From Chloroflexota bacterium (GTDB lineage Bacteria; Chloroflexota; UBA6077; CF-72): 64,000 nt of DNA. The stretch is taken from contig JAFAZN010000098.1 in assembly GCA_019239775.1 (NCBI GenBank), positions 19,594 to 83,593 of the forward strand. Reading direction: 5' to 3'. The notes beneath the pieces are model-generated. The model made no database searches and was not told the origin of the DNA. It worked only from the letters and a program-made list of their open reading frames with translations. The position numbers were made by a program, and so were the translations under genes. Position 1 is the first letter of the stretch, and each line of letters begins with the position of its first letter. This document shows positions 18,252 to 35,736 of the stretch, piece after piece.

Positions 18252-18299
18252 GCGGCCGCGCGCCTCACGTCACCACGCGCCAGGGCTGCGCACCCAGTG

Positions 18300-18500
18300 T
18301 TGGTGTCTCCACGAAGGTCCTCCCCAAGGGCGCCCGCACCGCAGAGGTCCATCCCCATGGAGGTGCCGATACCCGGAGGTCATCCCCACGGACGCCCCAC
18401 CACACGGACGTTCATCACCACGGGTGCAAACCCACGACCGTGCCAACCCACGGACGTGCCAACCCACGGACGTGCCAACCCACGGACGTCCACCCACTGG
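18300..18500. repeat. Degenerate 16-bp tandem repeat array between SBP and OppB-type permease genes
   Basis: Unit acccacggacgtgcca repeats with exact 16-bp spacing at 18446 and 18462, with a third near-copy at 18478 (last bases diverge). More degenerate upstream units extend to about 18300 (atccccatggaggtgcc, acccggaggtc, atccccacggacgcccc, accacacggacgttc). Confidence 0.85.
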
Positions 18501-18518
18501 AGGGCTGCGTGCAGCGGG

Positions 18519-20276
18519 CTACTGGGCCACGCTCCATGACAGCAGCGCGTCGTCATAGTCGAGGCGATCGCCTTTGTGCGCCACCACACCCTGGATCTTC
18601 TTCGAGACCGGGCTAAAGGCCTTCAGCGCATAGAGATAATGTGACGGCAGGTCCGCATTGACCAGCTGTTGCACCTGGTCATAGATCTGTTTGCGCTTGG
18701 CGTCGTCGAGCTCGGTTGATCCCTGCTTGAACAGCTGATCCACCTGGGGGTTGGAGTACCCGGTCACATTCTGCTGGCCGCCAGTAATGAGCTGGGCCCG
18801 CGGCCCGAGCTCCGGGTCGAGCGAGCCGCCGCCGTACGTCGCCAGCGAGATATCGAAGTCGCGTTGGTGCGAAACCTGGTCGGTGTACGCGTTGAAGTCC
18901 AGGCCCTTGACCTCAATCTCGATGCCGAGCTGCTTGTACTGCTGCTGCAAGTACGTGGCGATCTTGGCGCGCGGAGCGCTCGAGGTGGGGTAGAGCACCT
19001 GCAGTTTGACGGGCTGTCCATCTTTGCCCATGAGCGAAGACCCTGAAAGCGTGTACCCGGCATCCGCCAGCAACTGCTTTGCGCGATTCATGTCCAGGTC
19101 GTATGGCTCGACGTTGGGGTTGACCCACTTGGTGTTGGTTGGCTGAATGAAGCTGTCCTGGGGCGTGGCCAGCCCACCTTCGGCGACGTCGAGAACGTCC
19201 TGTCGGCTGACAGCTCGCGCAAGCGCCTCGCGCACTCGCTTGTCGCTGAGGAAGGGCCTGGCGGTGTTGAACTCGAGAGCGCGGTAGCTGGCGTTCGCCG
19301 CGGTCCACTCGACCATGTTCAGGTCGGGGTTGGCTTTGGCTTCCGCATACTGCGCGGGCGGAATGTTCGGCGCGTAGTTAGCGCGTCCGCTCTTCAGTTC
19401 TTCATAAGCGACTGTTGGCTGCTGGCCAGGCAGGATCTCGAGTTGCGGAATCTTCGGCTGGCCGCCTGGATACGTGCTGACCGGCGTGAACGTGGCGCCC
19501 TCGGCGATCTTGAAGTCCTGGACCTTGTACGGGCCGAGCACCACGCTTGGGTTCAGAATCTCGGGGTTCGCGCTGGTGTCATTCCATGCCTTGCCGTCCC
19601 AGACCTTCTTCGGAATCGGACTGACCGTTGAGGCGATGCCGAGCGCCACGTCGCGTGCCTTCTGTTCGTTGAGCGTGACCTCGATCGTGCGCGTATCGGC
19701 CGCGGTCTTGAACGATGCGATCTCGGTGAGGTCGTCGAGGCCAACGAAGTTGTTCTCGGGCTTGCTGGCGTTGTCCCAGGCGAACTGGAAATCGTCCACG
19801 GTAATCGGCGAGCCATCCGACCACTTCAAGTCATTCCGCAGGGTGAACGTGTACGTCTTGCCGTCGGCCGAGACCTTCGGCATGTCGGTCGCCATCGCGG
19901 GCTTGTACTCGAGGTTGTCCCAGTCGAATGCGAGCAGCCCGCCGGCGCCATGGCCACCCCAGAGCAAGATCGCGATGTCGGTCCAGGATTGTGTGTAGGA
20001 GGCCGCATCGGGGTACGGGTGCAGCGTCTTACTCAGGTTGGCCAGTGAGGCAATGGTCAGGGTCTGGCCAGACGCAGCCGGCGCGGGCGCGCTCGTCGCC
20101 GCGGCGGCTGGCGCGGCTGTCGATGTAGCGCCGCCGGCCGGCGCGGACGTCGGCGGCGGCGCTGGGGTGGCCTGAGAGGCCGGCGCACCTGACGGCCCTG
20201 GTGCCGTACATGCTCCGAGAACGAGACTCAGGCCCGCGAGTCCACGCAAGACGCGGGGGCGAATGGCGCCGAACAT
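18519..20276 (-). CDS. ABC transporter substrate-binding protein, peptide/Opp family (lipoprotein)
   Basis: Start moved to MFGAIRPRVLRGLAGLSLVLGACTAPGPS (lipobox LGAC). SBP_bac_5 features such as 'DGKTYTFTLRNDLKWSDGSPITVDDFQFAWDN', 'LSDKRVREALARAVSRQDVLD'. Confidence 0.93.
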   Translation of the reverse strand: MFGAIRPRVLRGLAGLSLVLGACTAPGPSGAPASQATPAPPPTSAPAGGATSTAAPAAAATSAPAPAASGQTLTIASLANLSKTLHPYPDAASYTQSWTDIAILLWGGHGAGGLLAFDWDNLEYKPAMATDMPKVSADGKTYTFTLRNDLKWSDGSPITVDDFQFAWDNASKPENNFVGLDDLTEIASFKTAADTRTIEVTLNEQKARDVALGIASTVSPIPKKVWDGKAWNDTSANPEILNPSVVLGPYKVQDFKIAEGATFTPVSTYPGGQPKIPQLEILPGQQPTVAYEELKSGRANYAPNIPPAQYAEAKANPDLNMVEWTAANASYRALEFNTARPFLSDKRVREALARAVSRQDVLDVAEGGLATPQDSFIQPTNTKWVNPNVEPYDLDMNRAKQLLADAGYTLSGSSLMGKDGQPVKLQVLYPTSSAPRAKIATYLQQQYKQLGIEIEVKGLDFNAYTDQVSHQRDFDISLATYGGGSLDPELGPRAQLITGGQQNVTGYSNPQVDQLFKQGSTELDDAKRKQIYDQVQQLVNADLPSHYLYALKAFSPVSKKIQGVVAHKGDRLDYDDALLSWSVAQ

Positions 20277-20286
20277 GGCATCTACC

Positions 20287-22182
20287 TTAGTACAGGACGC
20301 GCTCGTCGCCGACCCGGCGGGTGATCTTGTGCTCGTCGGTATAGCTGACCAGCGCCAGGGTGTACTTGCGCGACGCGTCAAGCAAGTCGCGAATCTGCGC
20401 CACCGTCCTTGGGCCATTGGCCGCAATATCAGCCCGAATGCGCGTCACGATGCCGTCGAGCGTTTCGCGGTCATAGACCAGGCCTGCTGCGACTTCGACG
20501 ACGCGTCCCTGCGCGATCAGCGCATCCACCAGCTCGGAGGAGATGCGCAACTCCGCTTCGAGGTCCGCTCGGTCGGGCGGCGACACCCCCGCCTCGCGCA
20601 GGACGTCGAGCAGTCCCGCGACCTGGCGTTCTTCGACGTCCGAAAAGTTGACCGTGTGCGAAACCAGGCGCACGTACGGGCCGTCCTCCGTGGCGACACC
20701 GTCGGCCTTGAGTCGCTCCAGCTCGCGCACGAACAGCCGTGGCTCGGCGCCGAGTCGTGTGCGCAGCTCCTCTTTGGACAGCCCTCGGCGGAGCGGGTAC
20801 CTCCGGTGAAACGCGCCGAGCGCGTCGTTGACCAGCCCGCTGAGCTGCTGCCAACCTGAGGTTGTCGCCACGAACGAGCGACCATCCACACGCGCCGACC
20901 CATTCGAAGCGTCGAGCAGCAGGACCTCATGTGCTTCCAGCAATCGGGTGATCGCAGCACGAACCTCAGTGGCAGGCATCCCCGAGCGGGCCGCGAGCGC
21001 GTCGACGTCAGACGGTTCGTGTGCCCGCAAACGTTCCAGGACGATCTCCTCAGGCGAACCCTGCGCCAGGACCTCGAGCTGCTGGAGCACGTTCGCCTGG
21101 CGTCGACGGTGCCGCCGCGCATGCGCTTCGACAATGGTGCCGCCGCCGATGGTCATGCTCGGAGAGGGCAACCGCAGCACGAACAGGTCGCCGCGCGCCA
21201 GCGCCACGTCGTCCTGCAGTCGCACCTGGACCCAGGCCTCGTCGCCAGGTTGGAGCTCGTCGCGATCCAGCAGTGACAGCTTGGCTAGCGTCTCAGCCGC
21301 GCCAGTGTGGAAGCTGACTTCGGTGTTGTGCTTGATCGCGTGTGCGTCGCGGATGAGGCGCAGGCGGGCATCGACCGCGCGGGTGGGCCGCAAACTCCCT
21401 GGCGCCGCGAGCACCTGGCCGCGGCGCAGGTCTTCGACGGCGACACCGCTGAGATTGACTGCCGTCCGCGTCCCGGCCGGGATCATTTCGAGCTTCTTGC
21501 GATGGCTCTGCAGGCCACGAACGCGCGAGCGCAGTCCACCTGGTTGCAGCTCCACCTCCATGCCCAGGTGAAGCTCGCCATCGATCAGCGTGCCGGTCAC
21601 CACCGTACCGAACCCCGCGACGGTGAACACGCGGTCTACCGGCAGGCGCGGGCGCCCACTGTTCGGGCGTGAGCGCTCCTTCTCCAAGAGGCGCTGGATC
21701 TCGGCGGTTAGTGCATCAAGACCCAGGCGCGTCGTGGAAGAACACGGGATGATCGATGCGCCGCCGAGGCATGTGCTGCTGAGGAACTCCTCCACATCGG
21801 CCTGGACGAGGTCCAGCCATTCGTCGTCCACCAGGTCGCGCTTGGTAAGGGCGACAACGCCGTTGGAGATGCCGAGTAGATCGAGAATTGCCACATGCTC
21901 ACGGGTCTGCGGCATGACGCCCTCGTCGGCGGCGATCACCAGCAGCGCGATATCGATGCCGCCGACGCCGGCCAGCATGTTGTGGATGAAGCGCTCGTGG
22001 CCGGGGACGTCCACGATCGAGACCTCCTGGCCATTCGGCAATTGGAGCCAGGCAAAGCCGAGATCGATGGTCATGCCGCGCTCCTTTTCTTCCTGGAGGC
22101 GGTCAGGATCGATGCCCGTGAGCGCGCGAATCAGCGTGGACTTGCCGTGATCGACATGGCCCGCAGTCCCGATGACTCTCAT
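20287..22182 (-). CDS. selB: Selenocysteine-specific translation elongation factor
   Basis: Start moved to MRVIGTAGHVDHGKSTLIRALTGIDPDRLQEEKERGMTIDLGFAWL; GTPase motifs, 'VDVPGHERFIHNMLAG', C-terminal winged-helix region. Confidence 0.95.
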   Translation of the reverse strand: MRVIGTAGHVDHGKSTLIRALTGIDPDRLQEEKERGMTIDLGFAWLQLPNGQEVSIVDVPGHERFIHNMLAGVGGIDIALLVIAADEGVMPQTREHVAILDLLGISNGVVALTKRDLVDDEWLDLVQADVEEFLSSTCLGGASIIPCSSTTRLGLDALTAEIQRLLEKERSRPNSGRPRLPVDRVFTVAGFGTVVTGTLIDGELHLGMEVELQPGGLRSRVRGLQSHRKKLEMIPAGTRTAVNLSGVAVEDLRRGQVLAAPGSLRPTRAVDARLRLIRDAHAIKHNTEVSFHTGAAETLAKLSLLDRDELQPGDEAWVQVRLQDDVALARGDLFVLRLPSPSMTIGGGTIVEAHARRHRRRQANVLQQLEVLAQGSPEEIVLERLRAHEPSDVDALAARSGMPATEVRAAITRLLEAHEVLLLDASNGSARVDGRSFVATTSGWQQLSGLVNDALGAFHRRYPLRRGLSKEELRTRLGAEPRLFVRELERLKADGVATEDGPYVRLVSHTVNFSDVEERQVAGLLDVLREAGVSPPDRADLEAELRISSELVDALIAQGRVVEVAAGLVYDRETLDGIVTRIRADIAANGPRTVAQIRDLLDASRKYTLALVSYTDEHKITRRVGDERVLY

Positions 22183-23594
22183 CGTGTGCTGGCCACCGCA
22201 CGCTCTAACTGACCGTCTTGCTCCGGGAGGATTGCCCTCAGGTCCAGGAGGACACGGTCGTCTTCGATGCGCGCAATCACCGGTGGGTCTGCTTGGCGGA
22301 GGCTTGCCGCGAGTGCCTTGGCTGAGTTGGCCTCCAGGGCGACGGCCCAACTGGATTGCGTTTGCCCTGGCAGCGAGCCGCCGCCAACCGCGGACCGCGT
22401 CTCTACGACCTCTGCACCCAGCCCGTGCGCGATGGCCTCCGCGCGAGAGCGCAGAACGTCCGATGGCGTTGCGATCATGCGCCACACCGGAATCTCACGC
22501 TCGGCGTCGCCGCGCACGTAGGCTGCCAGCGTTGCGCCCAGCGCAGCCAGGGTGAGCTTGTCAGGACGTATCGCCCGCATCAGCGGATGGCGTCGGAGCT
22601 GGCCGATTTCCGCGGCGCGACCCACGATGATGCCCGCTTGTGGTCCGCCCAGCAGCTTGTCCCCGGAAAAAGCCACCAGCGTTGTACCCGCGGCGATGCT
22701 GGTCTGCACCATCGGCTCGTGCGTCAGGCCGAATCGCGTGGTGTCCAGCAGTGCGCCTGAGCCGAGGTCATCTACCAGCGGGAGCCCGTGCCGGCTGGCG
22801 ACATCCACAAGTTCCTGGCCGGTGGGCTGGTGGATGAACCCGACCTGGAGAAAGTTCGAGGCGTGGACCTTGAGCAAGACGGCGGTGTTCGGCGTGATGG
22901 CGTTTTCGAAGTCCGCCGCGTAGGTTCGGTTGGTGGTGCCCACCTCGACGAGACTGACACCGGACTGGCGCATGACGTCCGGGATGCGGAAACCACCGCC
23001 AATCTCTACCAGCTGGCCGCGCGAGATGATCGCCTCTCGGCCCTGTGCCAGCGCCGAAAGCACCAGCAGCACCGCGGCCGCGTTGTTGTTGGTCACCAGG
23101 CCGTCCTCAGCGCCGGTGAGACGCTTCAGTAGATCGGTAACCAGGTTGTGGCGGGAGCCGCGCTCACCTTCGCCGAGGTCATACTCGAGGTTCGAGTAGC
23201 CCAGCCCCGCGTCCTGGGCCGCCTGCATCGCTGCGCGGCTCAGCGGTGCACGCCCGAGGTTCGTGTGAATGACCACGCCCGACGCGTTCAGGACTGCCTT
23301 GAGCCGCGGCGCGGTTTCGCGCACAACGCGCTCGTGGACAAGGCGTGGCAAGTCATCGAGGGCATGTGGCCAGCCGCCGTTTTTGGTCGCCTGGCGGGCC
23401 TCGTCCAGCACCTCGCGCGCAGCATGCACCACCAGGTCATGCGGCAGCGTTTTGAGGCTGTCGTCCTGGAGGAGTCTGTCGACGGAAGGAAGTTCCCGTG
23501 GCGTGAGGGCGGCCACGGACAGCGATTCTAGAACTTCAGGTTTGTGAGCCTGATTTGTGGCGGCCGCGTTCGATGAGCCACAGGCCTGCGCCAA
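22179..23594 (-). CDS. selA: L-seryl-tRNA(Sec) selenium transferase (start uncertain)
   Basis: 471 aa; 'INTNLGRAPLS'-type 'VIHTNLGRAPLSRAAM', 'FSGDKLLGGPQAGIIVGR', 'MRAIRPDKLTLAALGATL'. ATGA overlap with selB. The annotated start overlaps the upstream gene, so a later start is possible. Confidence 0.93.
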   Translation of the reverse strand: MAQACGSSNAAATNQAHKPEVLESLSVAALTPRELPSVDRLLQDDSLKTLPHDLVVHAAREVLDEARQATKNGGWPHALDDLPRLVHERVVRETAPRLKAVLNASGVVIHTNLGRAPLSRAAMQAAQDAGLGYSNLEYDLGEGERGSRHNLVTDLLKRLTGAEDGLVTNNNAAAVLLVLSALAQGREAIISRGQLVEIGGGFRIPDVMRQSGVSLVEVGTTNRTYAADFENAITPNTAVLLKVHASNFLQVGFIHQPTGQELVDVASRHGLPLVDDLGSGALLDTTRFGLTHEPMVQTSIAAGTTLVAFSGDKLLGGPQAGIIVGRAAEIGQLRRHPLMRAIRPDKLTLAALGATLAAYVRGDAEREIPVWRMIATPSDVLRSRAEAIAHGLGAEVVETRSAVGGGSLPGQTQSSWAVALEANSAKALAASLRQADPPVIARIEDDRVLLDLRAILPEQDGQLERAVASTR

Positions 23595-24072
23595 CCAGCA
23601 GCAGCGGCCAGGTGAGGTGAAAGATTGCGCCGAAGGTGTCCTTCAGCCAGGGTGCCTGCATCACGAAGCTGAGCCATGCGATGACGGCCAGGGCGGCGGC
23701 TGGCCAGATCGCCCAGCGATGCCTGAACGGATCGCCGAAAAGGTAGATGACGCCGAAGCCTGTGGCCAGGCTGCCGGCCAGGAGCGCGCCGTGGATGTAG
23801 TCAGGGGTGAGGTCGTGCGAAGACAGCAGGGTGCCGAGGCCGAGGCCGCCCAACACGCCCGCGGCGACCACCAGGTTGGACGCCCGATGTGGCTGATTGA
23901 AGTAGGCAAAGAACAGCGCGGCGGCGAAGGCCACAAAGAACAGGCCCGGGTTGGTTAGGTGGAGAACTTGCCCGATCAGAATCGTCAACCCAATGCCGAT
24001 CAGCGCCGCAGCGGCGACAGAGCCCGAGCGCCCGCGCAAAGCCGAGGTGGTGGACACACACCTTTGACGCAC
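23536..24072 (-). CDS. Hypothetical multi-TM membrane protein
   Basis: 178 aa ORF with about 5 hydrophobic segments; same strand and overlapping selA. Confidence 0.6.
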   Translation of the reverse strand: MRQRCVSTTSALRGRSGSVAAAALIGIGLTILIGQVLHLTNPGLFFVAFAAALFFAYFNQPHRASNLVVAAGVLGGLGLGTLLSSHDLTPDYIHGALLAGSLATGFGVIYLFGDPFRHRWAIWPAAALAVIAWLSFVMQAPWLKDTFGAIFHLTWPLLLVGAGLWLIERGRHKSGSQT

Positions 24073-24096
24073 CGCCAGTCGTTTTGGTTGCGCCGA

Positions 24097-24431
24097 CTCC
24101 GCGCACCACCGCCCGGGCTCAGAGGTTTAGTGCGCGGCAGCTTCGCCTGCGCCGGCTTCGCTTCGCGGCGACCCACCCGGCGGACACCTCGACGGTTTCG
24201 CGGTTGGACCCTGGGCCAACGCACTGCCACTGGGCAATGTCGCTGGGTGCCGACTGGTATCTGTGCCGTGCGGCGAAACATCATTGGGGCCAATCTGCAG
24301 GGCACTGCGTGACACGAACCGTTGGTGCGCTGGCGCGCGGGCGGCGCCTGCGCGGTCGCCGCCGCGAAGCGGAGCGGTTATATGCGGAGCTACCGCGCAC
24401 TAAACCTTCAACCCCGGGCGGTGGTGCGCGG
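24097..24431. repeat. Long imperfect inverted repeat (MITE-like or fold-back element)
   Basis: Left arm ccgcgcaccaccgcccgggctcagaggtttagtgcgcggcagct (from 24099) matches the reverse complement of the right arm agctaccgcgcactaaaccttcaaccccgggcggtggtgcgcgg (to 24431). Weaker similarity extends inward (cgcttcgcggcgac), giving arms of about 75-80 bp. Confidence 0.75.
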
Positions 24432-24440
24432 AGGCGGGGG

Positions 24441-25334
24441 TTAGCCTTTGATGCCGGTGGTGGCAACTCCTGGGCGGAAGTATTGCTGTAGGGCCAAGAA
24501 GACGAGCACGACGGGTAAGACCAGGATCGTCGAGCCTGCCATCAGCAGGCCATAGTCCGTTGCGTTTTGGCCTACCGCGAAGGTCGCTACGGCGACTGGC
24601 AGGGTGTACATGCGCTCTGAGCTACTCACCACCAGCGGCCAGAGGAAGTTGTTCCAGGACGCCAGGAACGTCAGGATGCCCAGCGTCGCCAGCGGCGCGT
24701 AGCTGATCGGGAACACCACCCTGAAAAAGATGCCGAGCTCACTGGCGCCGTCGATCCGCGCGGCCTCGAGCAGGTCGTCGGGAATGCCCAGCATGAACTG
24801 GCGCATCAGGAAGACGCCGAACGGACCTGCCGCGAACGGCAGGATCAACGCGGGATAGCTGTTGACCAGCCCCAACGTGCTCATCAACACGAACAGTGGC
24901 ACCAGCGTGACGGTGCTCGGCACCATCAACGTGGCCATCACAATCAGGAAGATCTGCTCGCGCCCCGCAAAGTGCAGCTTCGCCAGCGCGTAGCCGAGCA
25001 TCGAGCAGAACAGCAGGTTGGCGCCCACCACGAACACGGCCACCACCAGTGAGTTGAAGAAGAACAGCGGGAAATTGAGCTTCTGAAACAGCGTGGTGTA
25101 GTTGTCGAGCGTTGGCCTGACCGGCAGCAGCGTGGGCGGGAACGCGTGAAGCTCCTGGGCATCTTTGAACGACGAGGCCACCATCCACAGGAACGGTCCC
25201 GCGACCAGCACCAGGCCCAGCGCGAAGACGATGAAGACCCACCAGTTACGCGGCAGCAGCGCCGGCGCGCGATGCGTTTGCGCATCCTTGACGCCAACAC
25301 GTGAGAAAGTTGCGCTATGCGCCGAGACGCTCAT
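24441..25334 (-). CDS. Carbohydrate ABC transporter permease (MalG/UgpE family)
   Basis: Likely start MSVSAHSATF; 'ARIDGASELGIFFRVVFPISYAPLATLGILTFLASWNNFLWPLV' (EAA motif). Confidence 0.92.
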   Translation of the reverse strand: MSVSAHSATFSRVGVKDAQTHRAPALLPRNWWVFIVFALGLVLVAGPFLWMVASSFKDAQELHAFPPTLLPVRPTLDNYTTLFQKLNFPLFFFNSLVVAVFVVGANLLFCSMLGYALAKLHFAGREQIFLIVMATLMVPSTVTLVPLFVLMSTLGLVNSYPALILPFAAGPFGVFLMRQFMLGIPDDLLEAARIDGASELGIFFRVVFPISYAPLATLGILTFLASWNNFLWPLVVSSSERMYTLPVAVATFAVGQNATDYGLLMAGSTILVLPVVLVFLALQQYFRPGVATTGIKG

Positions 25335-25370
25335 GCCTGTCGCCCACACGCGGTCACGCCACACACTGTG

Positions 25371-25562
25371 TTGGCGTTCGACGCCAATGCCCGGCGCAGC
25401 GCGTCAGCAGGGGGGACGCCGCGGGAAGGAGCGACGGAACGGAGCGACTGGCGGCGGGGGCGGCACGCCCCCTGACCAGTGCGAAGCACGCCAGCCGAGC
25501 ATGCTCGGCTGGCCACCGTGGCGCATGCGCCACGGTGCGGAGCCCGCTCATGAGCGGGCTCC
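25371..25562. repeat. Cluster of palindromes/hairpins, including three perfect 24-bp palindromes
   Basis: 25490-25513 GCCAGCCGAGCATGCTCGGCTGGC; 25514-25537 CACCGTGGCGCATGCGCCACGGTG; 25539-25562 GGAGCCCGCTCATGAGCGGGCTCC. Each equals its reverse complement. Additional hairpins at 25456-25472 (GGGGGCG-GCA-CGCCCCC) and 25371-25387 (TTGGCG-TTCGA-CGCCAA). Confidence 0.95.
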
Positions 25563-25574
25563 CTCCAAATGACT

Positions 25575-26474
25575 TCATGTTTCGTTCCTCAACAGGCGGA
25601 ACTGGACCACCGTCACCGCCGCGATCACTACGAACATCGTGTACGCGATTGCGCTGGCGTAGCCCAGGTGAAAAAAGTTGAAGCCCTGCTGGTACATGTA
25701 GATCGACACCGAGAGCGTGCGGTTCAGTGGACCACCCTGGGTCATCACGAAGGGCTCCTCGAAGATTTGCAAGTAGCCGATCGTGGTCATCACCGCCGCG
25801 AACAAGGTGGTCGCGTGCAGCAGGGGCCAGGTGATGCTGCGGAACTCACGCCAGCGCCCGGCGCCGTCGATGCTGGCCGCCTCGTACACCTCGTTGGGAA
25901 TGCCCTGCAGACCAGCCAGGAACAACACCATGGCGTTGCCGAGGTTGCGCCAGACGACGATCGCGGTGATCGTCGGTAGGGCAAGGTTCGGGTCGCCAAG
26001 CCAGTTGACTGGCTGTACGCCAATCATGCGCAGCAGATCGTTCAGGAGGCCGTAGTCCGGGTCCAGCAGAAAACGCCAGATCACCGCGATGGCGACGATG
26101 CTCGTCACCACCGGCAGGTAGTAGCCAACGCGGAAAATGGCACGCAGCCGACCGAGAGCGCGGTTAACGCCGATGGCGGCCGCCAGACCAATAGCGAGCG
26201 TGGCAATGACGCCAAAGACCGTGAACAGGACGGTATTGACCGCGGCCTGGCGAAAGGTTTGATCGGCAAAGAGGGCGCCGTAGTTGGCAAGGCCGACGAA
26301 GCTCGCGCCGAGCGGACTGGCCAGGTCGGCCAGCCCAAAGCTCGTGAAGCTCATCACGAAGGACGCCACTATGGGCAGCGCCATGAATAGCGTGAAGATC
26401 ACCAGGAAGGGCGCGGCGAAGACGTAACCCGCGCTCGTGGTCCTGTGCCTCGCGGCAGCTGTGCTCACAGCCAC
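25575..26474 (-). CDS. Sugar ABC transporter permease (MalF/UgpA family)
   Basis: 299 aa, GTG start; 'AASIDGAGRWREFRSITWPLLHATTLFAAVMTTIGYLQIFEEPFVMTQGGPLNRTLS'. Confidence 0.92.
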   Translation of the reverse strand: MAVSTAAARHRTTSAGYVFAAPFLVIFTLFMALPIVASFVMSFTSFGLADLASPLGASFVGLANYGALFADQTFRQAAVNTVLFTVFGVIATLAIGLAAAIGVNRALGRLRAIFRVGYYLPVVTSIVAIAVIWRFLLDPDYGLLNDLLRMIGVQPVNWLGDPNLALPTITAIVVWRNLGNAMVLFLAGLQGIPNEVYEAASIDGAGRWREFRSITWPLLHATTLFAAVMTTIGYLQIFEEPFVMTQGGPLNRTLSVSIYMYQQGFNFFHLGYASAIAYTMFVVIAAVTVVQFRLLRNET

Positions 26475-26554
26475 GAGCGCACCTGTGCGGAGAGAGGTTC
26501 TCCACTCCGTGAGGGACCACGGTCTGCCGTGTGAGTTACGCCAGGTTGTTGCAC

Positions 26555-26855
26555 CACGGAGGTCCAGGAGCCTTCCTGGTTCTCTGTGCAGGGTTTGGGG
26601 CGCTCAACCCGGTGGGTCACGCCAAGACGATCACCCATGAAGGTCCAGGAGCCTTCCTGGTTCTCTGTCCGAGGTCTGGGGCGCTCAAACCGGTGGGTCA
26701 CGCCAAGGCGTTCACCCATGAAGGTCCAGGAGCCTTCCTGGTTCTCTGTGCAGGGTTTGGAGCGCTCAAACCGGTCGGTCACGCCAAGGCGTTCACCCAC
26801 GGAGGTCCAGCAGCCTTCCTGGTTCTCTGTCCGAGGTCTGGAGCGCTCAACACCA
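26555..26855. repeat. 81-bp tandem repeat array with alternating A/B subtypes, between SBP and permease genes
   Basis: 'ggtccagNagccttcctggttctctgt' recurs at 26561, 26642, 26723 and 26804 (81-bp spacing). Copies 1 and 3 carry gtgcagggtttgg; copies 2 and 4 carry gtccgaggtctgg. Confidence 0.95.
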
Positions 26856-26892
26856 TTGGGCGCCGGCGCAAACAGGAACAGCATGACCAGAC

Positions 26893-28155
26893 CTACGGCT
26901 TGTAGATGCTGGTGGCGGCCTGCTGCATGCCCTTGGCGGCATCCTGTGGAGACACCTGGCCCAGGCACGCCTTCTGGAGCCAATCGTTCAGCTGATTGGC
27001 GATCTCTTCCCACTGGGGAATCGATGGCGGCGCCTTCGAGCTGTTGAGCTGATCGCCGAAGACCTTCAACGACTGGTCGCTGGAGATGGTCTGGTCATCC
27101 CAGGCCGACTTCACGGCCGGAAGGTCGTTGATGTCCTTGTACCAGGCGACCTGCGTCGCGGGCTGGGTCATGTACTGCACGAACTTCCAGGCCGCGTCGC
27201 GATTCGGCGAGTTCTTGAACACCGCGAACTCGGCGCCACCGACGAACGAGGTCGAGCTCTGGTCCTTGGGAACCATGGCGGTAGCCCATTTGCCCTCGAG
27301 GTTCGGTGCCGCCTTCTGAATCAGGCTGCGATGCCAGGGTCCCGAGAAGAACATGGGCGTATCGCCAGACACAAAGGTCTGCGTCACGTCGAAACCTTGC
27401 GGCTCGGTCTGCGGCGTCAAGTTCTGCTGGAAGAAGGTGACGTATTCGGTGAGCGCCTTGACGGCCGCGTCACTGTCCAGGGTGAACTGACCGTTCTGCA
27501 TGATGTCGCCGCCGGCTGAGTACAGGAACGGCACGTACTCCTCCCAGTTGTTGCTGGAAAGAGCGATGCCGTACTTGGCACCGGCGCCGTGATATGCCTG
27601 CGCGAGTTTGTTCAGGTCGTCCCAGGTCTGCGGCGACCCGGCTATACCAGCCTGCTGGGCGAGATCGGTGCGGTAGTACAGGACGCGGGTATCGACGTAC
27701 CACGGCACGCCCACGAGCTTGCCGTTGTACGAGCCAGCATCGATGGCGGCTTTGTAGAAGTCGTTCTGGTTGATCGCGCCGGGCACGTCGTCCATGGCGT
27801 TGAGCTTCGAGAACTCGCCGGCCCAGGTCGTGCCGAGCTGCGTGACGTCTGGCGTCTGTTTGCCCGCGACGGCGGTGATCAGCTTGTCATGCGCGACGTT
27901 CCACGGGATCGCGGTCACGTTGACCTTGATGTTCGGATTGGCCTGCTGGAACTGTTGAATGACGTCGCTGTTGCCGAGCTTGTCACCCTCGTCGCCCATG
28001 GCCCACACGGACAACGTCACATTGCCGGTCGTCGCGTTCGAGCCAGACGAAGATGACGACGTCGTACCGCTCGATGCGCCGTTGGAAGAACACGCCACGG
28101 AGAAGACGAGCGCGGCCGCGGCTGCCAACCGCGCAAGATCCGAGATGCGCTGCAT
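26893..28155 (-). CDS. Extracellular sugar-binding protein of ABC transporter (SBP_bac_1 type lipoprotein)
   Basis: 420 aa; N-terminus 'LVFSVACSSNGASSG' lipobox, 'VTLSVWAMGDEGDK', 'AFVGGAEFAVFKNSPNRDAAWKFVQYMTQP'-type C-terminal region. Confidence 0.92.
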   Translation of the reverse strand: MQRISDLARLAAAAALVFSVACSSNGASSGTTSSSSSGSNATTGNVTLSVWAMGDEGDKLGNSDVIQQFQQANPNIKVNVTAIPWNVAHDKLITAVAGKQTPDVTQLGTTWAGEFSKLNAMDDVPGAINQNDFYKAAIDAGSYNGKLVGVPWYVDTRVLYYRTDLAQQAGIAGSPQTWDDLNKLAQAYHGAGAKYGIALSSNNWEEYVPFLYSAGGDIMQNGQFTLDSDAAVKALTEYVTFFQQNLTPQTEPQGFDVTQTFVSGDTPMFFSGPWHRSLIQKAAPNLEGKWATAMVPKDQSSTSFVGGAEFAVFKNSPNRDAAWKFVQYMTQPATQVAWYKDINDLPAVKSAWDDQTISSDQSLKVFGDQLNSSKAPPSIPQWEEIANQLNDWLQKACLGQVSPQDAAKGMQQAATSIYKP

Positions 28156-28275
28156 TCACATCACCTCTTGGTCGGACCGGTACGTCCGTGGTCCACCCCC
28201 GCGGCGGCTCCCGTCCGAGATGTCGTGATACGGGCGGCAGCAGAATGCGTGCCCGCGCGAGCCTGTCGGCCGAAC

Positions 28276-28545
28276 CTAGGCGTTGCAGGCGGCGAGCACG
28301 GCCGCCACGGCGCGATCGTACGCATCGCGCTGCTCAGCGCTCGCCGTTGCTGCGCTGCCGTCACCCGCCGACACGAGATTTCGCGTCGCGCGCGTGCAGG
28401 TGGCGGAGCCGAGTTGGCCCAAAGGCAGCATCGCGTATTCGGAGCGCTGGAAGGCATCCGACGCGACCAGTGAATTGGTGCCGATGTAGCTGGCGAAGGT
28501 GAGGGAAACGATCAGCGCCAACCAGCAAACGGTCCAGCGAGCCAC
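28276..28545 (-). CDS. Small secreted/membrane hypothetical protein
   Basis: 89 aa with hydrophobic N-terminus MARWTVCWLALIVSLTFASYIGTNSLVAS; no recognised family. Confidence 0.4.
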   Translation of the reverse strand: MARWTVCWLALIVSLTFASYIGTNSLVASDAFQRSEYAMLPLGQLGSATCTRATRNLVSAGDGSAATASAEQRDAYDRAVAAVLAACNA

Positions 28546-28587
28546 GGCGCGCGGACTCTAACCACGCCAGCGGCAAAACTCTATGGT

Positions 28588-30681
28588 TTGTGCGTGACGG
28601 GAACGTCTCAGTCGACCATTGCGCGCCTGGAAGACCTGGTTGGCCGCATGACACTGGCGGAAAAGGTTGGTCAGTTGAATCTGCTCCAACCGCATCGGTT
28701 CACGGATCTAGAAGAGAAAATCCGCAACGGGCAGGTGGGCGGCGTCTTCGGCGTGCTCAATCCGGCTGACATCGAGCGCTATCAGCGGGTGGCCCGCCAT
28801 GAGAGCCGCTTGGGCATCCCATTACTGGTCGGCAACGACGTCATCCATGGGTACCGCACGGTGTTTCCGATTCCTCTCGCCGAAGCCTGCACCTGGGATC
28901 CGGGGCTGCTCGAGCAAGCAGCGCAGGTTGCGGCGCGCGAAGCCGCGGCCAACGGCACCGATTGGATCTTTGCGCCGATGGTCGATATCTGTCGCGAGCC
29001 ACGCTGGGGGCGCGTCGCGGAAGGCGCGGGCGAGGATCCCTATCTTGGCAGCGTCATTGCCGCTGCGCGCGTGCGCGGGTTTCAGTCGATTGAGGGCATT
29101 GCGGCGTGCCCCAAGCATTACGTCGCGTACGGCGCCGTGGAGGCAGGCCGCGACTACAACAGCGTGGACGTCTCCGAACGCGCGCTCCGCGATGTCTACC
29201 TGCCGCCGTTCAAAGCCGCGTTCGATGCGGGCGCCGAGACCGTAATGAGCTCGTTCAACGACATCGCCGGCGTAGCCGCGACGATCAATCACTTCACCTT
29301 GCGCACCATCCTGCGCGAAGAGTGGGGCTGGCCCGGCGTGGTGGTAAGCGACTACACCGCCATCGCGGAGCTGATCGAGCACGGCGTCGCGGCCGACCTC
29401 AGGGACGCCGCGCGGCTCAGTTTGCTGGCCGGGGTCGACATGGACATGCAGAGCGAGGCTTATGACCGGCACCTGGTCGCGCTGGTTTCCGAAGGGGCGG
29501 TGCCTCTTGACCTGGTTGACGAGGCCGTCCGACGCGTTCTGCGGCTGAAGTTCCAACTGGGCTTGTTCGAGCGCGAGCGCCTGGACCAGGGTCGTGCCGA
29601 GTCGGCGCTTCTGACGGAGGAAGCTCGAGAGGTTGCGCTGCGTGTGGCGCATGAATCGCTGGTGCTGCTCAAAAACGACGGAGATGCGCTGCCGCTTACG
29701 CCGAATGCGCGGGTGGCTTTGGTGGGCGAGCTTGCCGATTCGCGCAAGGACATGCTGGGCTGCTGGTCGCATACCGGTCGCGCCGAAGACGCCGAAACCA
29801 TCCTGGACGGGCTATCGGCGCGCCTTGGCTCGCGACTGGAGTACGTGGCCTCGGAGGTGACGGCGGCCGTCGCGGCTGCACGTACCGCGGATGCCGTAGT
29901 TAGTGTTGTCGGCGAGACCGCGGACCTGAGCGGCGAAGCACATTGTCGGGCGCACCTCGGTCTGCCAGGTCAGCAGGCGGCGCTGCTGGAGGCGCTCGCC
30001 GAGACTGGCAAGCCGCTCGTAGTCGTGCTTGCAACAGGTCGACCCCTGGCTATTCCGCGAGTGGTGGAGCAAGCCACCGCGCTGGTGCTCGCCTGGCATC
30101 CAGGCATTCGGGCTGGCCGCGCCGTGGCCGACGTGCTGTTCGGCGACGTCAACCCTTCTGGCCGGCTGGCGATCACCTTCCCGCGCACCGAGGGACAGAT
30201 CCCGATCTATTACGCGCACAAAAGCACCGGCCGCCCAGCCGAAGGGCAGGGCACGTTGCAGTTCGACGTGCCGTTCCGTTCGACATACCTCGATGAGCCC
30301 AACGCGCCGCTGTTCCCGTTCGGGTTCGGCTTGAGTTACACGCGTTTTGCGTACAGCGATCTCGAGATCGAAAGCCCCATCACCGACAGGGTGGTTGCCT
30401 GCGCCAACGTGCGGAATGTCGGCGGGCGGGCTGCAACGGAGGTGGCGCAGCTGTACGTGCGCGACCTGGTCGCCAGCATTACCCGCCCGGTCCGCGAGCT
30501 GAAAGCCTTCGAGCGGATCACGCTGCAGCCGGGCGAGTCGCGCCAGGTGCGCTTCGACGTGCCCGTTGCGAGCCTGGGCTTCACGGGACTCGACATGCGC
30601 TATCAGGTTGAGCCTGGCGAGTTCCGTCTATGGATCGGCTCCGACTCGGCCAGCGGCCTGGAGGGCAGCTTCCGCATCTAA
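28588..30681 (+). CDS. Glycoside hydrolase family 3 beta-glucosidase-like
   Basis: 697 aa; 'MTLAEKVGQLNLL', 'GIPLLVGNDVIHGYRTVFPIPLAEACTWDPGLLEQAA', 'VVSDYTAIAELIEHG', C-terminal Fn3-like region. Confidence 0.95.
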   Translation: MCVTGTSQSTIARLEDLVGRMTLAEKVGQLNLLQPHRFTDLEEKIRNGQVGGVFGVLNPADIERYQRVARHESRLGIPLLVGNDVIHGYRTVFPIPLAEACTWDPGLLEQAAQVAAREAAANGTDWIFAPMVDICREPRWGRVAEGAGEDPYLGSVIAAARVRGFQSIEGIAACPKHYVAYGAVEAGRDYNSVDVSERALRDVYLPPFKAAFDAGAETVMSSFNDIAGVAATINHFTLRTILREEWGWPGVVVSDYTAIAELIEHGVAADLRDAARLSLLAGVDMDMQSEAYDRHLVALVSEGAVPLDLVDEAVRRVLRLKFQLGLFERERLDQGRAESALLTEEAREVALRVAHESLVLLKNDGDALPLTPNARVALVGELADSRKDMLGCWSHTGRAEDAETILDGLSARLGSRLEYVASEVTAAVAAARTADAVVSVVGETADLSGEAHCRAHLGLPGQQAALLEALAETGKPLVVVLATGRPLAIPRVVEQATALVLAWHPGIRAGRAVADVLFGDVNPSGRLAITFPRTEGQIPIYYAHKSTGRPAEGQGTLQFDVPFRSTYLDEPNAPLFPFGFGLSYTRFAYSDLEIESPITDRVVACANVRNVGGRAATEVAQLYVRDLVASITRPVRELKAFERITLQPGESRQVRFDVPVASLGFTGLDMRYQVEPGEFRLWIGSDSASGLEGSFRI

Positions 30682-30765
30682 AAGTTCGGCCGCACTCTCA
30701 GGCGCTGACAGCATTTGGCAGTTTTTCGCGCCGCGGTGGCAGTTCGGCGGCGCGACGCTCAGGTC

Positions 30766-31392
30766 ATGAGCGTTCTCCCTCTCCACGCCACACGGTCGGG
30801 CTTGTACACGGTCAAGCCCCGTTTTCAAGCGCTGCTGGCGCCCCTCGCGCAGGGCATGGCCAACCAGCGTGTGAATCCGGATGTGTTGACGGTCGCCGCC
30901 GTGGGCTGCGGCCTTCTGGGCGGCGCCGCATTGGGGTTGAGCCCACAACAGCCTCTGCTGCTCTGGACCATCCCGCCACTGGTGGCCTTGCGCCTCGGTC
31001 TCAACGCGCTCGACGGCATGGTTGCCACGCGCCGCGGAGTCGCCCGCCCCTGGGGCAAAGTCCTCAACGAGCTGTGCGACCGACTGGCTGACCTGGCGTT
31101 CTTCTGGCCGCTGCTCATCCTGCCAGCTGTAAGCCCGGTTTGGGCTGTCGCGAGTATGGGGGCGATGCTGCTGGTGGCGTTCATCGGCGTGCTCAGCGAG
31201 ACGGTGACTGGCGTGCGCCAGTACGGCGGACCCATGGGCAAGGCGGACCGGATGGCCTGCCTCGGTCTCGCCGCCGCGGCCACTGCGCTACTCGGTACGT
31301 GGGCGACGATGCAGATCCTCGCCATTGTCATCGTCGGCGGCGGCCTCCTCACGGCCTACCAGCGACTGGAGCGCACCCATGCTGCTCTCTAA
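30766..31392 (+). CDS. CDP-alcohol phosphatidyltransferase family protein (YnbA-like)
   Basis: Start moved to MSVLPLHATRSGLYTVKPRFQALL; signature region 'LNALDGMVATRRGVARPWGKVLNELCDRLADLAFF' (DGxxAR...G...D...D type). Confidence 0.88.
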   Translation: MSVLPLHATRSGLYTVKPRFQALLAPLAQGMANQRVNPDVLTVAAVGCGLLGGAALGLSPQQPLLLWTIPPLVALRLGLNALDGMVATRRGVARPWGKVLNELCDRLADLAFFWPLLILPAVSPVWAVASMGAMLLVAFIGVLSETVTGVRQYGGPMGKADRMACLGLAAAATALLGTWATMQILAIVIVGGGLLTAYQRLERTHAAL

Positions 31393-32278
31393 TCCGATCG
31401 CCTCACCGATGTGGCCGACGCTGGCCTGGACGTTCGGGGGCCTTTTCGGCGGATCACTGGTGGCGCTGCTGATCACTGCGCATGGGCGTTGGCAAGAGCT
31501 GTCGGGCTCGGTGCTGTTTCGGCGCTGGCGCACCTGGATCGCCATCGCCGCGGTCTTCAGCGTTGCGACCCTCAGCGGCCCGATCGCTCTTGCGCTTTTC
31601 GTTGGCGCGGTCGCCGTGGTCGCCAGCCACGAGTACGCCCGCCTGTTCAAGCTACCTGCACCGGACGCGTGGGTTCTCCGGTGCGCGGCGGTGGCCGTGC
31701 CATTGGCGGCACTCGTCGTGGCGCCCATTTCGCTGACGCCGCTATTTCCTCTGGTCGCCGCTCTCCCGGCACTGTGTGCTCAGGACGTCAAACATGGGGC
31801 CAACCGTTTAGGGCGGCTGGCGTTTGGCCTCTGGTACGTGCCGCTCACACTTGCCATGCTCGTGTCGCTCGAAGGCGACCCGCGCGGCGGCCCGGGCCTG
31901 GTCCTCGCCCTCGCGCTGGCCACGGCGCTCTCGGACGTTGGCGCGTTCACGTTCGGAAAACTCTTCGGCCGCTACACAGCCCCGCTGGCGGCGCGGCTCA
32001 GTCCGTCGAAGACTGTGGCCGGTCTGGGCGGCAACCTCGCGGGCGCGGCCCTTGGCGTACTGCTCCTCCGACCAGCAGCGCCGGCCATGTGGCTGCTCAT
32101 TATGGTTGTGGCCGTCGGTAGCGTCTGGGGCGATCTGCTCGAGTCACTGCTGAAGCGAGCCGCCGGCGCCAAAGACGCGGGCACGTGGCTGCCCGGGTTC
32201 GGTGGAGTCCTCGACCGAGTCGATTCGCTGCTCATCGTGCTGCCGCTGGCAACCGCGGCCCTGGCGCTGTCGGCATGA
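31379..32278 (+). CDS. Phosphatidate cytidylyltransferase-like (YnbB/CdsA-like)
   Basis: Start MLLSNPIASPMW; 'DVGAFTFGKLFGRYTAPLAARLSPSKTVAGLGGNLAGAALG', 'VWGDLLESLLKRAAGAKDAGTWLPGFGGVLDRVDSLLI'. Confidence 0.92.
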   Translation: MLLSNPIASPMWPTLAWTFGGLFGGSLVALLITAHGRWQELSGSVLFRRWRTWIAIAAVFSVATLSGPIALALFVGAVAVVASHEYARLFKLPAPDAWVLRCAAVAVPLAALVVAPISLTPLFPLVAALPALCAQDVKHGANRLGRLAFGLWYVPLTLAMLVSLEGDPRGGPGLVLALALATALSDVGAFTFGKLFGRYTAPLAARLSPSKTVAGLGGNLAGAALGVLLLRPAAPAMWLLIMVVAVGSVWGDLLESLLKRAAGAKDAGTWLPGFGGVLDRVDSLLIVLPLATAALALSA

Positions 32279-32910
32279 CCGGCTGCGACTGGAGTAGATC
32301 GCGCCCCGCGTCCCTCGTGCGGTGCGCGTTTCAGGATGGCGTGCTCGTGCCGGTGGTGCGCGCGTGTTTCGGCGTCCGGACGGCCGGCGGAGAGTCGAAC
32401 CTCGAAGGGGCGCTGCTGATTGTTGCCAACCATGCGAGCCACCTGGATACGCCAGCGATTCTCGCAGCGCTGCCGCCGCACATCCGCCATCGCACAGCGG
32501 TTGCCGCGGCCGCCGACTACTTCTACCGCTCGCGTCTGGTAGGCAGCGCGGCCAGCCTCGGTATCGGCACCTTCGCCTTTGCGCGGCATGGGCGCGACGG
32601 TACGACGTGCGCCACGCGGTTGCTGGCCGACGGCTGGAACGTCCTGCTGTTTCCGCAAGGTAGCCGCGGCAGCGACCCCACCTGGCAAGCCTTCCGCGCT
32701 GGGGTTGGCCATCTCGTCGCGGATACGGGGGTAGGCGTGTTGCCGCTGGCCGTGTCCGGGACTCGGACGTTGTGGCCGCGCGGCCAGCGGTTTCCACGCC
32801 TTGGACCAATCGACATCCGTTTCGGGCAGGTGTGGCGTCCGGCTCCAGACCTTTCCCCCTGCGACATCGTCAGCCAGCTCGAAGCACAAGTGAAGGAGCT
32901 CCTCAAATGA
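32275..32910 (+). CDS. Lysophospholipid acyltransferase (PlsC family)
   Basis: Start MTGCDWSRSR; 'IVANHASHLDTPAIL' (NHxxxxD), 'LLFPQGSRGSDP'. Confidence 0.9.
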   Translation: MTGCDWSRSRPASLVRCAFQDGVLVPVVRACFGVRTAGGESNLEGALLIVANHASHLDTPAILAALPPHIRHRTAVAAAADYFYRSRLVGSAASLGIGTFAFARHGRDGTTCATRLLADGWNVLLFPQGSRGSDPTWQAFRAGVGHLVADTGVGVLPLAVSGTRTLWPRGQRFPRLGPIDIRFGQVWRPAPDLSPCDIVSQLEAQVKELLK

Positions 32911-33701
32911 TCTGGACCATTGCTCGCAATACATTTCGCTCGCTCGGCGCCGTCTCGGACGGTGTCCGCACGGGCGTGGAATTCGGTTTCAGCTCGGGCG
33001 AAATGCTCGATTACGTGTATGACAACCGGGCGCGCGGCCGCGGGTCGGTTGGCCGCCTGATCGACCGCATGTATCTGAATTCCACGGGGTGGTGCGGCAT
33101 CCGGGAACGTCGAAGCAACCTCGTCCGCACGCTGACCGCATTGGTACTCGCGCGCCGGGCGAACGGTCTCCACACGCGCATCCTGGACATCGCCGCGGGA
33201 CCTGGCCGCTACTTGCTGGACGTGGCTGCCGACCTCGGCGGTGATGACCTGTGCATCGAGTGCCGCGACGCGGATGCTGACGCGGTGACGTTGGGACGTC
33301 AACAGGCTGCGGAACGTGGACTGCACAACGTGATCTATGCGCGGCACGACGCGCTCGACGCGGAGGCGCCGGCGTCCATTCGGCCAAAACCCGACATCGT
33401 CGTCGCCTCGGGCCTGTACGAAATCCTGACCGACGAAGCCGCCATCCGGCGTTCGCTGCGCGGGCTCGCGCAACTCCTTGGGCCGGATGGCGTCCTGGTG
33501 CTGACCGGCCAGCCGCAGCACCCCCAGCTCGAGCTCATCGCGCGTTTGCTGACGCACCGCGATGGCTCCCCCTGGCGCATGCACCTGCGGTCCACCGAAA
33601 CTCTGGAGACGTGGTGCCGCGAGGCGGGCTTCGCAGACATCCACACGCTCGGCGACACTCGCGGCATCTTCACGATCTCGCTGATGCGAACTGCTGCCTA
33701 G
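32907..33701 (+). CDS. Class I SAM-dependent methyltransferase (YnbC methyltransferase-domain-like)
   Basis: 264 aa; 'ILDIAAGPGRYLLDVA', 'IVVASGLYEIL'; ATGA-type overlap with the acyltransferase gene. Confidence 0.82.
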   Translation: MIWTIARNTFRSLGAVSDGVRTGVEFGFSSGEMLDYVYDNRARGRGSVGRLIDRMYLNSTGWCGIRERRSNLVRTLTALVLARRANGLHTRILDIAAGPGRYLLDVAADLGGDDLCIECRDADADAVTLGRQQAAERGLHNVIYARHDALDAEAPASIRPKPDIVVASGLYEILTDEAAIRRSLRGLAQLLGPDGVLVLTGQPQHPQLELIARLLTHRDGSPWRMHLRSTETLETWCREAGFADIHTLGDTRGIFTISLMRTAA

Positions 33702-33762
33702 GAATGCGGCCGAAAACCCTGTTGCAGACCCTGGAAGCGCTTGCCGCGTTCCTAGGCCAATC

Positions 33763-35496
33763 TCAGGAAAGAAGCGCGGCCGACGAAGAGGCGACGTCCA
33801 GCAGCTCCATCTCCAGCCGCCAGTAACCATCGAAGCGGGTGCGCTTCAGGCGGAAGGCGGTATCCAGCAGGTCGCCGGTGTGGAATTGCGTCGCCAGCTG
33901 ACCGTGGTCGAAGAACACGGCTTCGACAGGCACCGTGTCGAAGGCGCGGAAGCGCGCCCGCCAGTGCTGGCCGCCGGCGCCCAACTGCCGGCTTTCCGTC
34001 AGGCGCAGGCCTTTCGCGGCGAATGTCGGATACTGAAAGCCGGCGCCAAAAGGAGCCAGCCGTTCCAGCGAACGAGCGAACTCATACGAGATGGTTTCGG
34101 GCCTCAGATACCCGTCGATCCACAAGATTGGCTCCAGCCGTTCGGGAGGCAAAGTCTCGCGGACGGCGTTTTGAAAGCGTTCGACGAGCTCGCCAAGGCG
34201 TGACGCGTGGAGGCTGAAGCCGGCTGCCGCCTGGTGGCCGCCGTAGCGGTCGAACACGTCGTCACACGCCTGCAGCGCTCCAAGCAGATTGAAGCCCTGA
34301 ATGCTGCGACCCGAGCCTGTGACCATACCTTCGCTCTGGCGGTACACCAGCGTCGGCCGGTTGTAGGCCTGAGCGAGCTTGCCAGCAACGAGGCCGACGA
34401 TGCCGCCCGGCCAATCATCACCACCGCACACCAGGGCGTACTCGCCCGATTCGAACTGCGCCTGAACCAGCTCGTGCGCTTCCAGCTCGAAGGTGCGCGT
34501 CAGCGCCTGGCGTTCTTCGTTGAGCCGATTGACCTCAGCGGCCAGCGCAAAAGCCTCCTCGAACGTGTCGGACATCAAGAGTCGATAGGCGATGTTCGGG
34601 TCGTCGAGGCGACCGGCTGCGTTGACTCTCGGCGCGACACGAAAGCCCAGCGCGGCGGCATCCACGTCACCTGGCTTAAGGCCCGACGTCTCGATCAGGG
34701 CCCTGACGCCCGGCCGCGGGAACGCATTCATAATGTTGAGGCCCGCCAGCACCAGGCGGCGGTTTTCGCCGAGGAGCGGCATGATGTCCGCAACCGTGGC
34801 GACGGCAACCAGGTCCAACAGCGGCTCCATCGCCGCACGACCGTCCGGCAGCAGCGCTTCGGCCAGCGCCTGCACGAGCTTGAATGCGACTCCTGCCCCG
34901 CACAGGTAATCGCACGGGTAGCCGCAGTCCGGCCGCCACGGATTGACCAGGGCGTAGGCGTTCGGCAGCTGATCGGGGCACTGGTGATGGTCGGTAATGA
35001 TGAGGTCCACGCCGCGAGCTCGCGCCAGGTCCGCGGCCTCGTGGGAGCTCGAGCCGCAGTCCGCGGTGACGATCACCTGCGCGCCGGCCTGAGCCAGCTC
35101 GTCGACGATGGCGGGAGTCAGGCCGTAGCCGTCCACGAAGCGATTCGGCAGGCGCACACGCGGCTCTATGCCGACCAGGCGCAGGCCGGTGGACAGCACC
35201 GCCGCGGAGTTCACTCCGTCGGCGTCATAGTCGGTGAAGACGGCGACGCGTTCGTTGTTCTGGCGCGCCTTTGCCAATCGCTCCACGGCTCTGGGCACGT
35301 CCTGGAGAAGGTTGGGGTCGTCGGGATCGCGGCACACGCCGGCGAGGAAGTCCTCGCACAACGCGGAGTCGGCCAGGCCTCGGGTGTACATCACCTGGAC
35401 CATTGCCGGATGCACGTCTTTCACGCGCTGGAACAGCGTGCTCGGTGCACGTGGGACCGTACGCCAGATGTACTTGAGGCCGCGGCGCTCGCTCAT
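33763..35496 (-). CDS. recJ: Single-stranded-DNA-specific exonuclease RecJ
   Basis: Start MSERRGLKYIWRTVP; DHH motifs 'VAVFTDYDADGVNSAAVL', 'VDLIITDHHQCPDQLPNAYALVNPWR', DHHA1 'GGHQAAAGFSL'. Confidence 0.93.
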   Translation of the reverse strand: MSERRGLKYIWRTVPRAPSTLFQRVKDVHPAMVQVMYTRGLADSALCEDFLAGVCRDPDDPNLLQDVPRAVERLAKARQNNERVAVFTDYDADGVNSAAVLSTGLRLVGIEPRVRLPNRFVDGYGLTPAIVDELAQAGAQVIVTADCGSSSHEAADLARARGVDLIITDHHQCPDQLPNAYALVNPWRPDCGYPCDYLCGAGVAFKLVQALAEALLPDGRAAMEPLLDLVAVATVADIMPLLGENRRLVLAGLNIMNAFPRPGVRALIETSGLKPGDVDAAALGFRVAPRVNAAGRLDDPNIAYRLLMSDTFEEAFALAAEVNRLNEERQALTRTFELEAHELVQAQFESGEYALVCGGDDWPGGIVGLVAGKLAQAYNRPTLVYRQSEGMVTGSGRSIQGFNLLGALQACDDVFDRYGGHQAAAGFSLHASRLGELVERFQNAVRETLPPERLEPILWIDGYLRPETISYEFARSLERLAPFGAGFQYPTFAAKGLRLTESRQLGAGGQHWRARFRAFDTVPVEAVFFDHGQLATQFHTGDLLDTAFRLKRTRFDGYWRLEMELLDVASSSAALLS

Positions 35497-35524
35497 TTGT
35501 TCTGGGGCGCATCTTAACCGGAAT

Positions 35525-35700
35525 CGCGTCACACCCGGTAGGACTTTTCGCCGCCACTCGCCGGTAGCACGTCCGCGCCGCATCACTCCGTAGGGACTTC
35601 AACCCGGAAAGGATTCCACCCTGGTCGGGGACCGTTACTGCGTAAGGATCACCTCCGTGAGCAGGCACGTCCGTGGCGGTCACCTCGGTGGGAAGTGCCG
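35525..35700. repeat. Degenerate ~16-bp repeat array upstream of aminotransferase gene
   Basis: Units acctccgtgagcaggc / acgtccgtggcggtc / acctcggtgggaagt, with earlier degenerate units (atcactccgtagggacttca, acccggaaaggattcc). Confidence 0.55.
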
Positions 35701-35736
35701 AACGGTGGTGCGCGGGACTGGCGCGGGTAGACTGAC

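What the first reader, a model, noticed from the sequence alone, without database searches (positions are those of the whole stretch)
26555..26855. 81-bp tandem array with alternating A-B-A-B higher-order (162-bp) structure
Four copies at exact 81-bp spacing (26561, 26642, 26723, 26804) alternate between two subtypes: gtgcagggtttgg in copies 1 and 3, gtccgaggtctgg in copies 2 and 4. This implies duplication of a two-unit block. Each copy contains the stem CCAGGA-gcct-TCCTGG and can be parsed into five ~16-bp subunits (16+17+16+16+16). It sits in the 419-bp gap between the sugar SBP gene and the first permease gene.
Basis: seen in the sequence. Interest (0 to 1): 0.7.

Follow-up and report, generated by a model that had tools for sequence, protein, structure and literature searches.

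The report
Locally amplified dispersed hairpin repeat
The 81-base tandem array between a sugar-binding-protein gene and its transporter gene is real, and it is a local multiplication of part of a hairpin-forming repeat scattered between genes in at least 77 places of this one bacterium's genome, much like the REP/BIME repeats of other bacteria.

Summary
The array is real: four copies spaced 81 bp, 26560-26850, with a degraded part-copy from 26531. It is intergenic (418-bp gap, SBP to first permease, both on minus) and non-coding. The five ~16-bp subunits are no better than chance (p=0.52). The A-B-A-B alternation rests on 4 of 13 variable columns, while 3 columns group copies 1+4 against 2+3, so one clean duplication of a two-unit block is not shown.

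The unit is not unique. Its first half (hairpin CCAGGA-gcct-TCCTGG plus one arm of a longer hairpin) is a truncated copy of a dispersed ~104-nt element with three hairpins. A covariance model built without the window finds 77 copies in this genome and none in the two same-genus genomes, and it also finds the array copies. Copies are almost all intergenic and often lie 8-30 nt after a stop codon with a T-rich tail on one strand, like REPs. The REP tags GTAG and CGTC and the RAYT transposase are missing. A malE-malF-like role (protecting SBP mRNA) is plausible, but SBP gaps here are not more structured than other gaps (p=0.45).

Verdict: a tandemly amplified piece of a new REP/BIME-like repeat family; function unproven.

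The parts
26560..26850 (.). 81-bp tandem array, 3.6 copies
   Evidence: TRF score 463
26531..26554 (.). divergent part-copy of the unit's 3' end on the left edge (15 of 24 identical)
26564..26579 (.). hairpin B of copy 1, CCAGGA-gcct-TCCTGG; terminator-like on + strand (tail TTCTCTG)
26645..26660 (.). hairpin B of copy 2
26726..26741 (.). hairpin B of copy 3
26807..26822 (.). hairpin B of copy 4, one broken pair (CCAGCA)
26665..26686 (.). copy 2 (subtype B): CTGTCCGAGGTCTGGGGCGCTC, one arm of the dispersed element's central hairpin (compare L071 and L072)
26893..28155 (-). sugar ABC transporter solute-binding protein (PF13416, PF01547), upstream of the array on the transcript
25575..26474 (-). 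first permease (PF00528), downstream of the array on the transcript
24441..25364 (-). second permease (PF00528)

Best explanation
The array is a local tandem amplification of a truncated copy of a genome-specific, dispersed, hairpin-forming intergenic repeat (works like REP/BIME or BOX elements). SHOWN: the unit's first half (hairpin B plus one arm of the central hairpin) belongs to a ~104-nt three-hairpin element with at least 77 matches in this genome. Copies sit in intergenic space, often just after stop codons. Other copies have also been re-duplicated locally (17-, 23-, 26-, 29- and 35-bp units). INFERRED: a copy lodged in the SBP-permease gap, lost its other end, fused with ~34 bp of local sequence, and was multiplied by slippage or unequal recombination, with partial conversion between copies giving the apparent A-B-A-B tract. 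INFERRED, weaker (about 0.3): transcribed with the SBP gene, the row of hairpins slows 3'-5' exonucleases and makes SBP mRNA outlast permease mRNA, as the protective structure between malE and malF does. Otherwise the array is a tolerated passenger. The confidence given is for identity and origin, not for the functional step.
For: Own-genome BLAST hits of the array at 3 other loci (E 2e-6 to 5e-5), none in 40 related genomes; profile hits at further loci and 39 matches of a single-copy element at E<=1. Hairpin B: 66 hits against 0 for the reversed pattern. Model R1, built from 14 copies outside the window: 77 matches in G000, 0 in G001 and G002, and it finds the four array copies at E 4e-5 to 0.003. 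The central hairpin keeps pairing through changes: covariation score 0.201 against 0.148 (sd 0.014) shuffled and at most 0.117 slid. 59 of 61 B sites intergenic; any repeat module in 18 of 174 gaps but 2 of 702 coding segments. B sites: 18 of 32 stop-facing sites within 30 nt of the stop; 4.4 T in the 9 nt after the stem against 1.7 background. Local re-duplication in other copies. The gap's minus-strand RNA folds with z -3.5. malE precedent: PMC5927463.
Against: The second half of the unit (~34 bp) has no counterpart found elsewhere, so the unit is a chimera. The first 150 nt of the gap on the transcript are not unusually structured (z -0.57), and 12 SBP gaps do not differ from 155 other tandem gaps (p=0.45). 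The z of -3.5 for the whole gap is partly what any repeated hairpin would give. The terminator-like orientation of the array copies is antisense to the operon. No empty site and no expression data; no close SBP orthologue in the relatives, so the insertion event was not seen.
Confidence: 0.75

Rival explanations
1. Selected mRNA-stability or attenuation device: the array is kept because tandem hairpins raise SBP over permease expression (malE-malF type).
For: Exact position between SBP and permease; four hairpins; z -3.5 over the gap; repeat modules in 4 of 12 SBP-permease gaps against 12 of 114 tandem gaps (the window was pre-selected, so 3 of 11 is the fair count); precedent PMC5927463.
Against: SBP gaps not more structured than others; the enrichment is weak without the window; most SBP gaps lack such repeats; B hairpins are more often placed as 3'-end elements facing a stop codon.
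Confidence: 0.3
2. Neutral minisatellite with no link to other repeats, made by replication slippage of local sequence.
For: The unit's second half is local only; only one such 81-bp array was found.
Against: The first half matches the dispersed element well beyond chance in an independent model.
Confidence: 0.08
3. Antisense transcription terminator: B hairpins with TTCTCT tails stop plus-strand transcription.
For: Terminator-like hits at copies 1-3 on plus only; T-rich tails and stop-codon proximity of dispersed B copies.
Against: No plus-strand gene reads into the array; six-pair stems with interrupted T tails are weak terminators.
Confidence: 0.15
4. Repeat-containing coding sequence (81 = 27 codons, open frames on both strands).
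For: Open frames through the array.
Against: Codon log-odds near 0 in the open frames (0.004 and 0.021) against gene median 0.23 and 5th percentile 0.14; more nonsynonymous than synonymous codon differences in every frame; no Pfam match.
Confidence: 0.03
5. Assembly artefact of a collapsed or mis-joined repeat.
For: Draft assembly in 507 contigs; related repeats elsewhere in the genome.
Against: Copies differ from one another and from all other loci; flanks are the continuous operon on an 83.6-kb contig.
Confidence: 0.06

Closest known systems
REP / BIME elements (GTAG- and CGTC-tagged palindromes; PMC3733652, PMC2817692)
   Same: High-copy, genome-specific, intergenic palindromes; combined in mosaics; near 3' ends of genes, often between convergent genes; tandem multiplication as in BIME-2
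   Different: No GTAG or CGTC tag, no RAYT/Y1 transposase in the assembled genome, parent element ~104 nt with three different hairpins, array copies all in one orientation
malE-malF intergenic protective structure of E. coli (PMC5927463)
   Same: Hairpin-forming sequence in the gap between SBP and first permease of a sugar ABC operon
   Different: No expression data here; SBP gaps of this genome are not more structured than others
STAR elements of staphylococci (PMC3532100)
   Same: Interspersed intergenic direct repeats that expand and contract locally, with species-specific abundance and locations
   Different: Read only in abstract here; no sequence relation; closer in style to the window's 16-bp family than to the 81-bp unit
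BOX elements of Streptococcus pneumoniae (from memory, not checked here)
   Same: Modular, hairpin-forming intergenic repeat with tandem copies of one module
   Different: No sequence relation tested

Membership tests
REP (GTAG/CGTC super-families) | Unpaired GTAG or CGTC tag at one end of the palindrome | tested here: not met
   Each tag within 8 nt of hairpin B in at most 2 of 58 sites
REP (GTAG/CGTC super-families) | Cognate RAYT (Y1 transposase, PF01797) in the genome (GTAG type) | tested here: not met
   0 matches in G000 (91% complete); family found in G001, G003, G004 and 5 control genomes
REP (GTAG/CGTC super-families) | Many dispersed palindromic copies in intergenic space | tested here: met
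   66 B hairpins against 0 control; 59 of 61 intergenic; 77 full-element matches
REP (GTAG/CGTC super-families) | Preference for 3' ends of genes | tested here: met
   18 of 32 stop-facing sites within 30 nt; 17 of 52 classifiable intergenic B hits between convergent genes
BIME | REPs in alternating orientation, in regularly spaced blocks | tested here: not met
   Array copies are tandem but all in the same orientation
malE-malF-type mRNA stabiliser | Hairpin(s) in the SBP-permease gap | tested here: met
malE-malF-type mRNA stabiliser | Longer half-life of the SBP mRNA segment | not testable with these tools
   needs RNA-seq after rifampicin
Rfam structured RNA | Match to a described family | tested here: not met
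   No match in window 17000-37000 at E<=1; for 9 element loci only a miRNA model at E 0.028, far below its gathering score
Intrinsic terminator (dispersed hairpin B) | GC-rich stem followed by T-run, just after a stop codon | tested here: inconclusive
   T-rich tail and stop proximity in the dispersed set; stem only 6 pairs; no transcript ends

The most novel reading that the evidence does not exclude
The genome carries a previously undescribed class of mobile intergenic element, ~104 nt with three hairpins, spread without a RAYT or REP tag, whose copies are recruited as 3'-end or attenuation hairpins and re-amplified in tandem where stoichiometry matters, the 81-bp array between SBP and permease being one such case.
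Probability: 0.12. Interest if true: 0.6.

Novelty: new member of a known kind. Interest (0 to 1): 0.3.

Why it matters
It turns an isolated oddity into one locus of a repeat system that occupies about a tenth of the sizeable intergenic gaps of one uncultured bacterium and, apart from hairpin A, is absent from its nearest sequenced relatives. If the element spreads without a RAYT, it is a case for asking how untagged REP-like repeats multiply; if the array tunes the SBP to permease ratio, it would be a tandem version of the malE-malF device.

Tried and rejected
16-bp subunit structure of the unit: tested, not supported. Link to the CCCACGGAGGTGATGT 16-bp arrays: only the short word CACGGAGGT at the unit joints (copies 1 and 4) fits that family; the profile scores about 0 or below across a copy-2 unit. 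Coding: rejected. Extra structure in SBP-permease gaps as a class: no. RAYT: absent. Rfam: none. Orthologous empty site: the leading SBP relatives in other genomes are about 24-29% identical, so there is no orthologous gap to compare. One hairpin-A pattern had the wrong loop length and was uninformative; repeated correctly. A scan of one genome for each of 85,000 species for hairpin B gave an unrelated repeat in MAG BWSM_27 (six sites) and one chance hit in Chitinophaga. The consensus-fold program did not recover the central hairpin on the first alignment; it was found by folding copies one by one.

Full report
CHECK OF THE OBSERVATION. The four copies at 81-bp spacing are there, with TRF score 463 over 26560-26850; the register continues to a degraded part-copy at 26531-26554. 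The stem is intact in copies 1-3 and has one broken pair in copy 4. Of 13 variable columns, 4 show the A-B-A-B pattern, all within 8 bases; 3 group copies 1 and 4 against 2 and 3; the rest differ. Whole-unit identities (1-2: 74, 1-3: 74, 2-3: 73 of 81) do not favour a two-unit block. A parse into five 16-bp subunits is at chance level.

SURROUNDINGS. The array lies in a 418-bp gap of a minus-strand operon: solute-binding protein (PF13416) and two permeases (PF00528). Open frames through the array have codon scores near zero and more nonsynonymous than synonymous differences between copies, so it is not coding.

THE DISPERSED ELEMENT. BLAST of the array against the genome gave three further loci and none in 40 relatives. 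Reading these loci showed the first half of the unit, AGGTCCAGGA..TCCTGGTT..CTGTCCGAGGTCTGGAGCGCTC, as part of a longer element; a single-copy query gave 39 matches at E<=1. Aligned copies show three hairpins: A (CTTCTCTT-nn-AAGAGAAG), a long central hairpin C, and B (CCAGGA-nnnn-TCCTGG, followed by ACCTCT). Folding copies one by one puts the same central pairs in most of them; counted on the alignment, 81.8% of cells pair and the covariation score is 0.201 against 0.148 (sd 0.014) shuffled and 0.117 or less slid, with the caveat that related copies inflate such scores and that the structure was derived from these same copies. A covariance model from 14 copies, none from the window, finds 77 matches in this genome, none in the two same-genus genomes and one marginal match (E 0.0016) in the 18 others. 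It finds the four array copies on the minus strand at E 4e-5 to 0.003. Hairpin B alone: 66 hits against none for the reversed pattern, other genomes at background. Hairpin A also occurs in G002 (17 against 20 in G000), not in G001.

WHERE COPIES SIT. 59 of 61 B hits are intergenic; repeat modules occur in 18 of 174 gaps of a sample not chosen for repeats (window included) but in 2 of 702 coding segments. Read GGTCC-first, B is T-rich after the stem (4.4 of 9, background 1.7) and 18 of 32 stop-facing sites are within 30 nt of the stop codon, much as described for REPs (PMC3733652). Local tandem re-duplication of B or A pieces is seen at several other loci. Gene calls are from a simple codon-usage finder written here, so single cases may be wrong.

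HOW IT MAY WORK. On the SBP transcript the array is a row of hairpins without U-tails. The gap as a whole folds better than shuffles (z -3.5), but controls are sobering: 12 SBP gaps do not differ from 155 other tandem gaps in folding, and repeat modules in SBP gaps (3 of 11 without the window) are not clearly more frequent than elsewhere (12 of 114). The malE-malF mechanism (PMC5927463) is therefore a plausible precedent, not a result. Terminator-like matches are on the plus strand, antisense to the operon.

COMPARISON. It works like a REP/BIME element by abundance, palindromes, position and mosaic build. It fails two defining tests, the GTAG/CGTC tag and a RAYT (genome 91% complete), and the array copies do not alternate in orientation. 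I file it as a new family of REP-like intergenic repeats, and the finding as a tandemly amplified fragment of it. No description was found in the paper searches made, which cover open-access text only.

Noticed in passing
window 18243-18510, 35640-35690 (-), 51540-51960; many contigs of the same genome: A second intergenic repeat family: degenerate 16-18-bp units, consensus CCCACGGAGGTGATGT, in arrays of up to about 26 units; 49 hits of the two-unit pattern against 1 control in this genome, none in the two same-genus genomes.
   Followed up: partly
window 51629-51888: 80-bp tandem array (3.2 copies) that contains CACGCAGTAACGG, which looks like the 3' arm of the dispersed element's central hairpin; its internal 16-bp parse is only weakly above chance (p 0.10).
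   Followed up: partly
L136 2253-2444, L123 10362-10438: Third tandem repeat with CGTCACGCGAGGCAATTGG-type 20-21-bp units in the same genome.
   Followed up: no
L078, L084, L137, L145 (G001): A same-genus genome has instead short arrays of an 8-bp unit of CGCGAACG type.
   Followed up: no
L045, L049-L056 (G017): A genome of the same class has arrays of 8-bp units CACGGAGG/CACGGAGA, similar in core word to the 16-bp family.
   Followed up: no
L279, L280, L282-L285 (MAG BWSM_27): Unrelated dispersed repeat with the same inner hairpin, ACCAGGAAGTATCCTGGACCTCCGCCAACC, and flanking hairpins, mostly right after stop codons.
   Followed up: no
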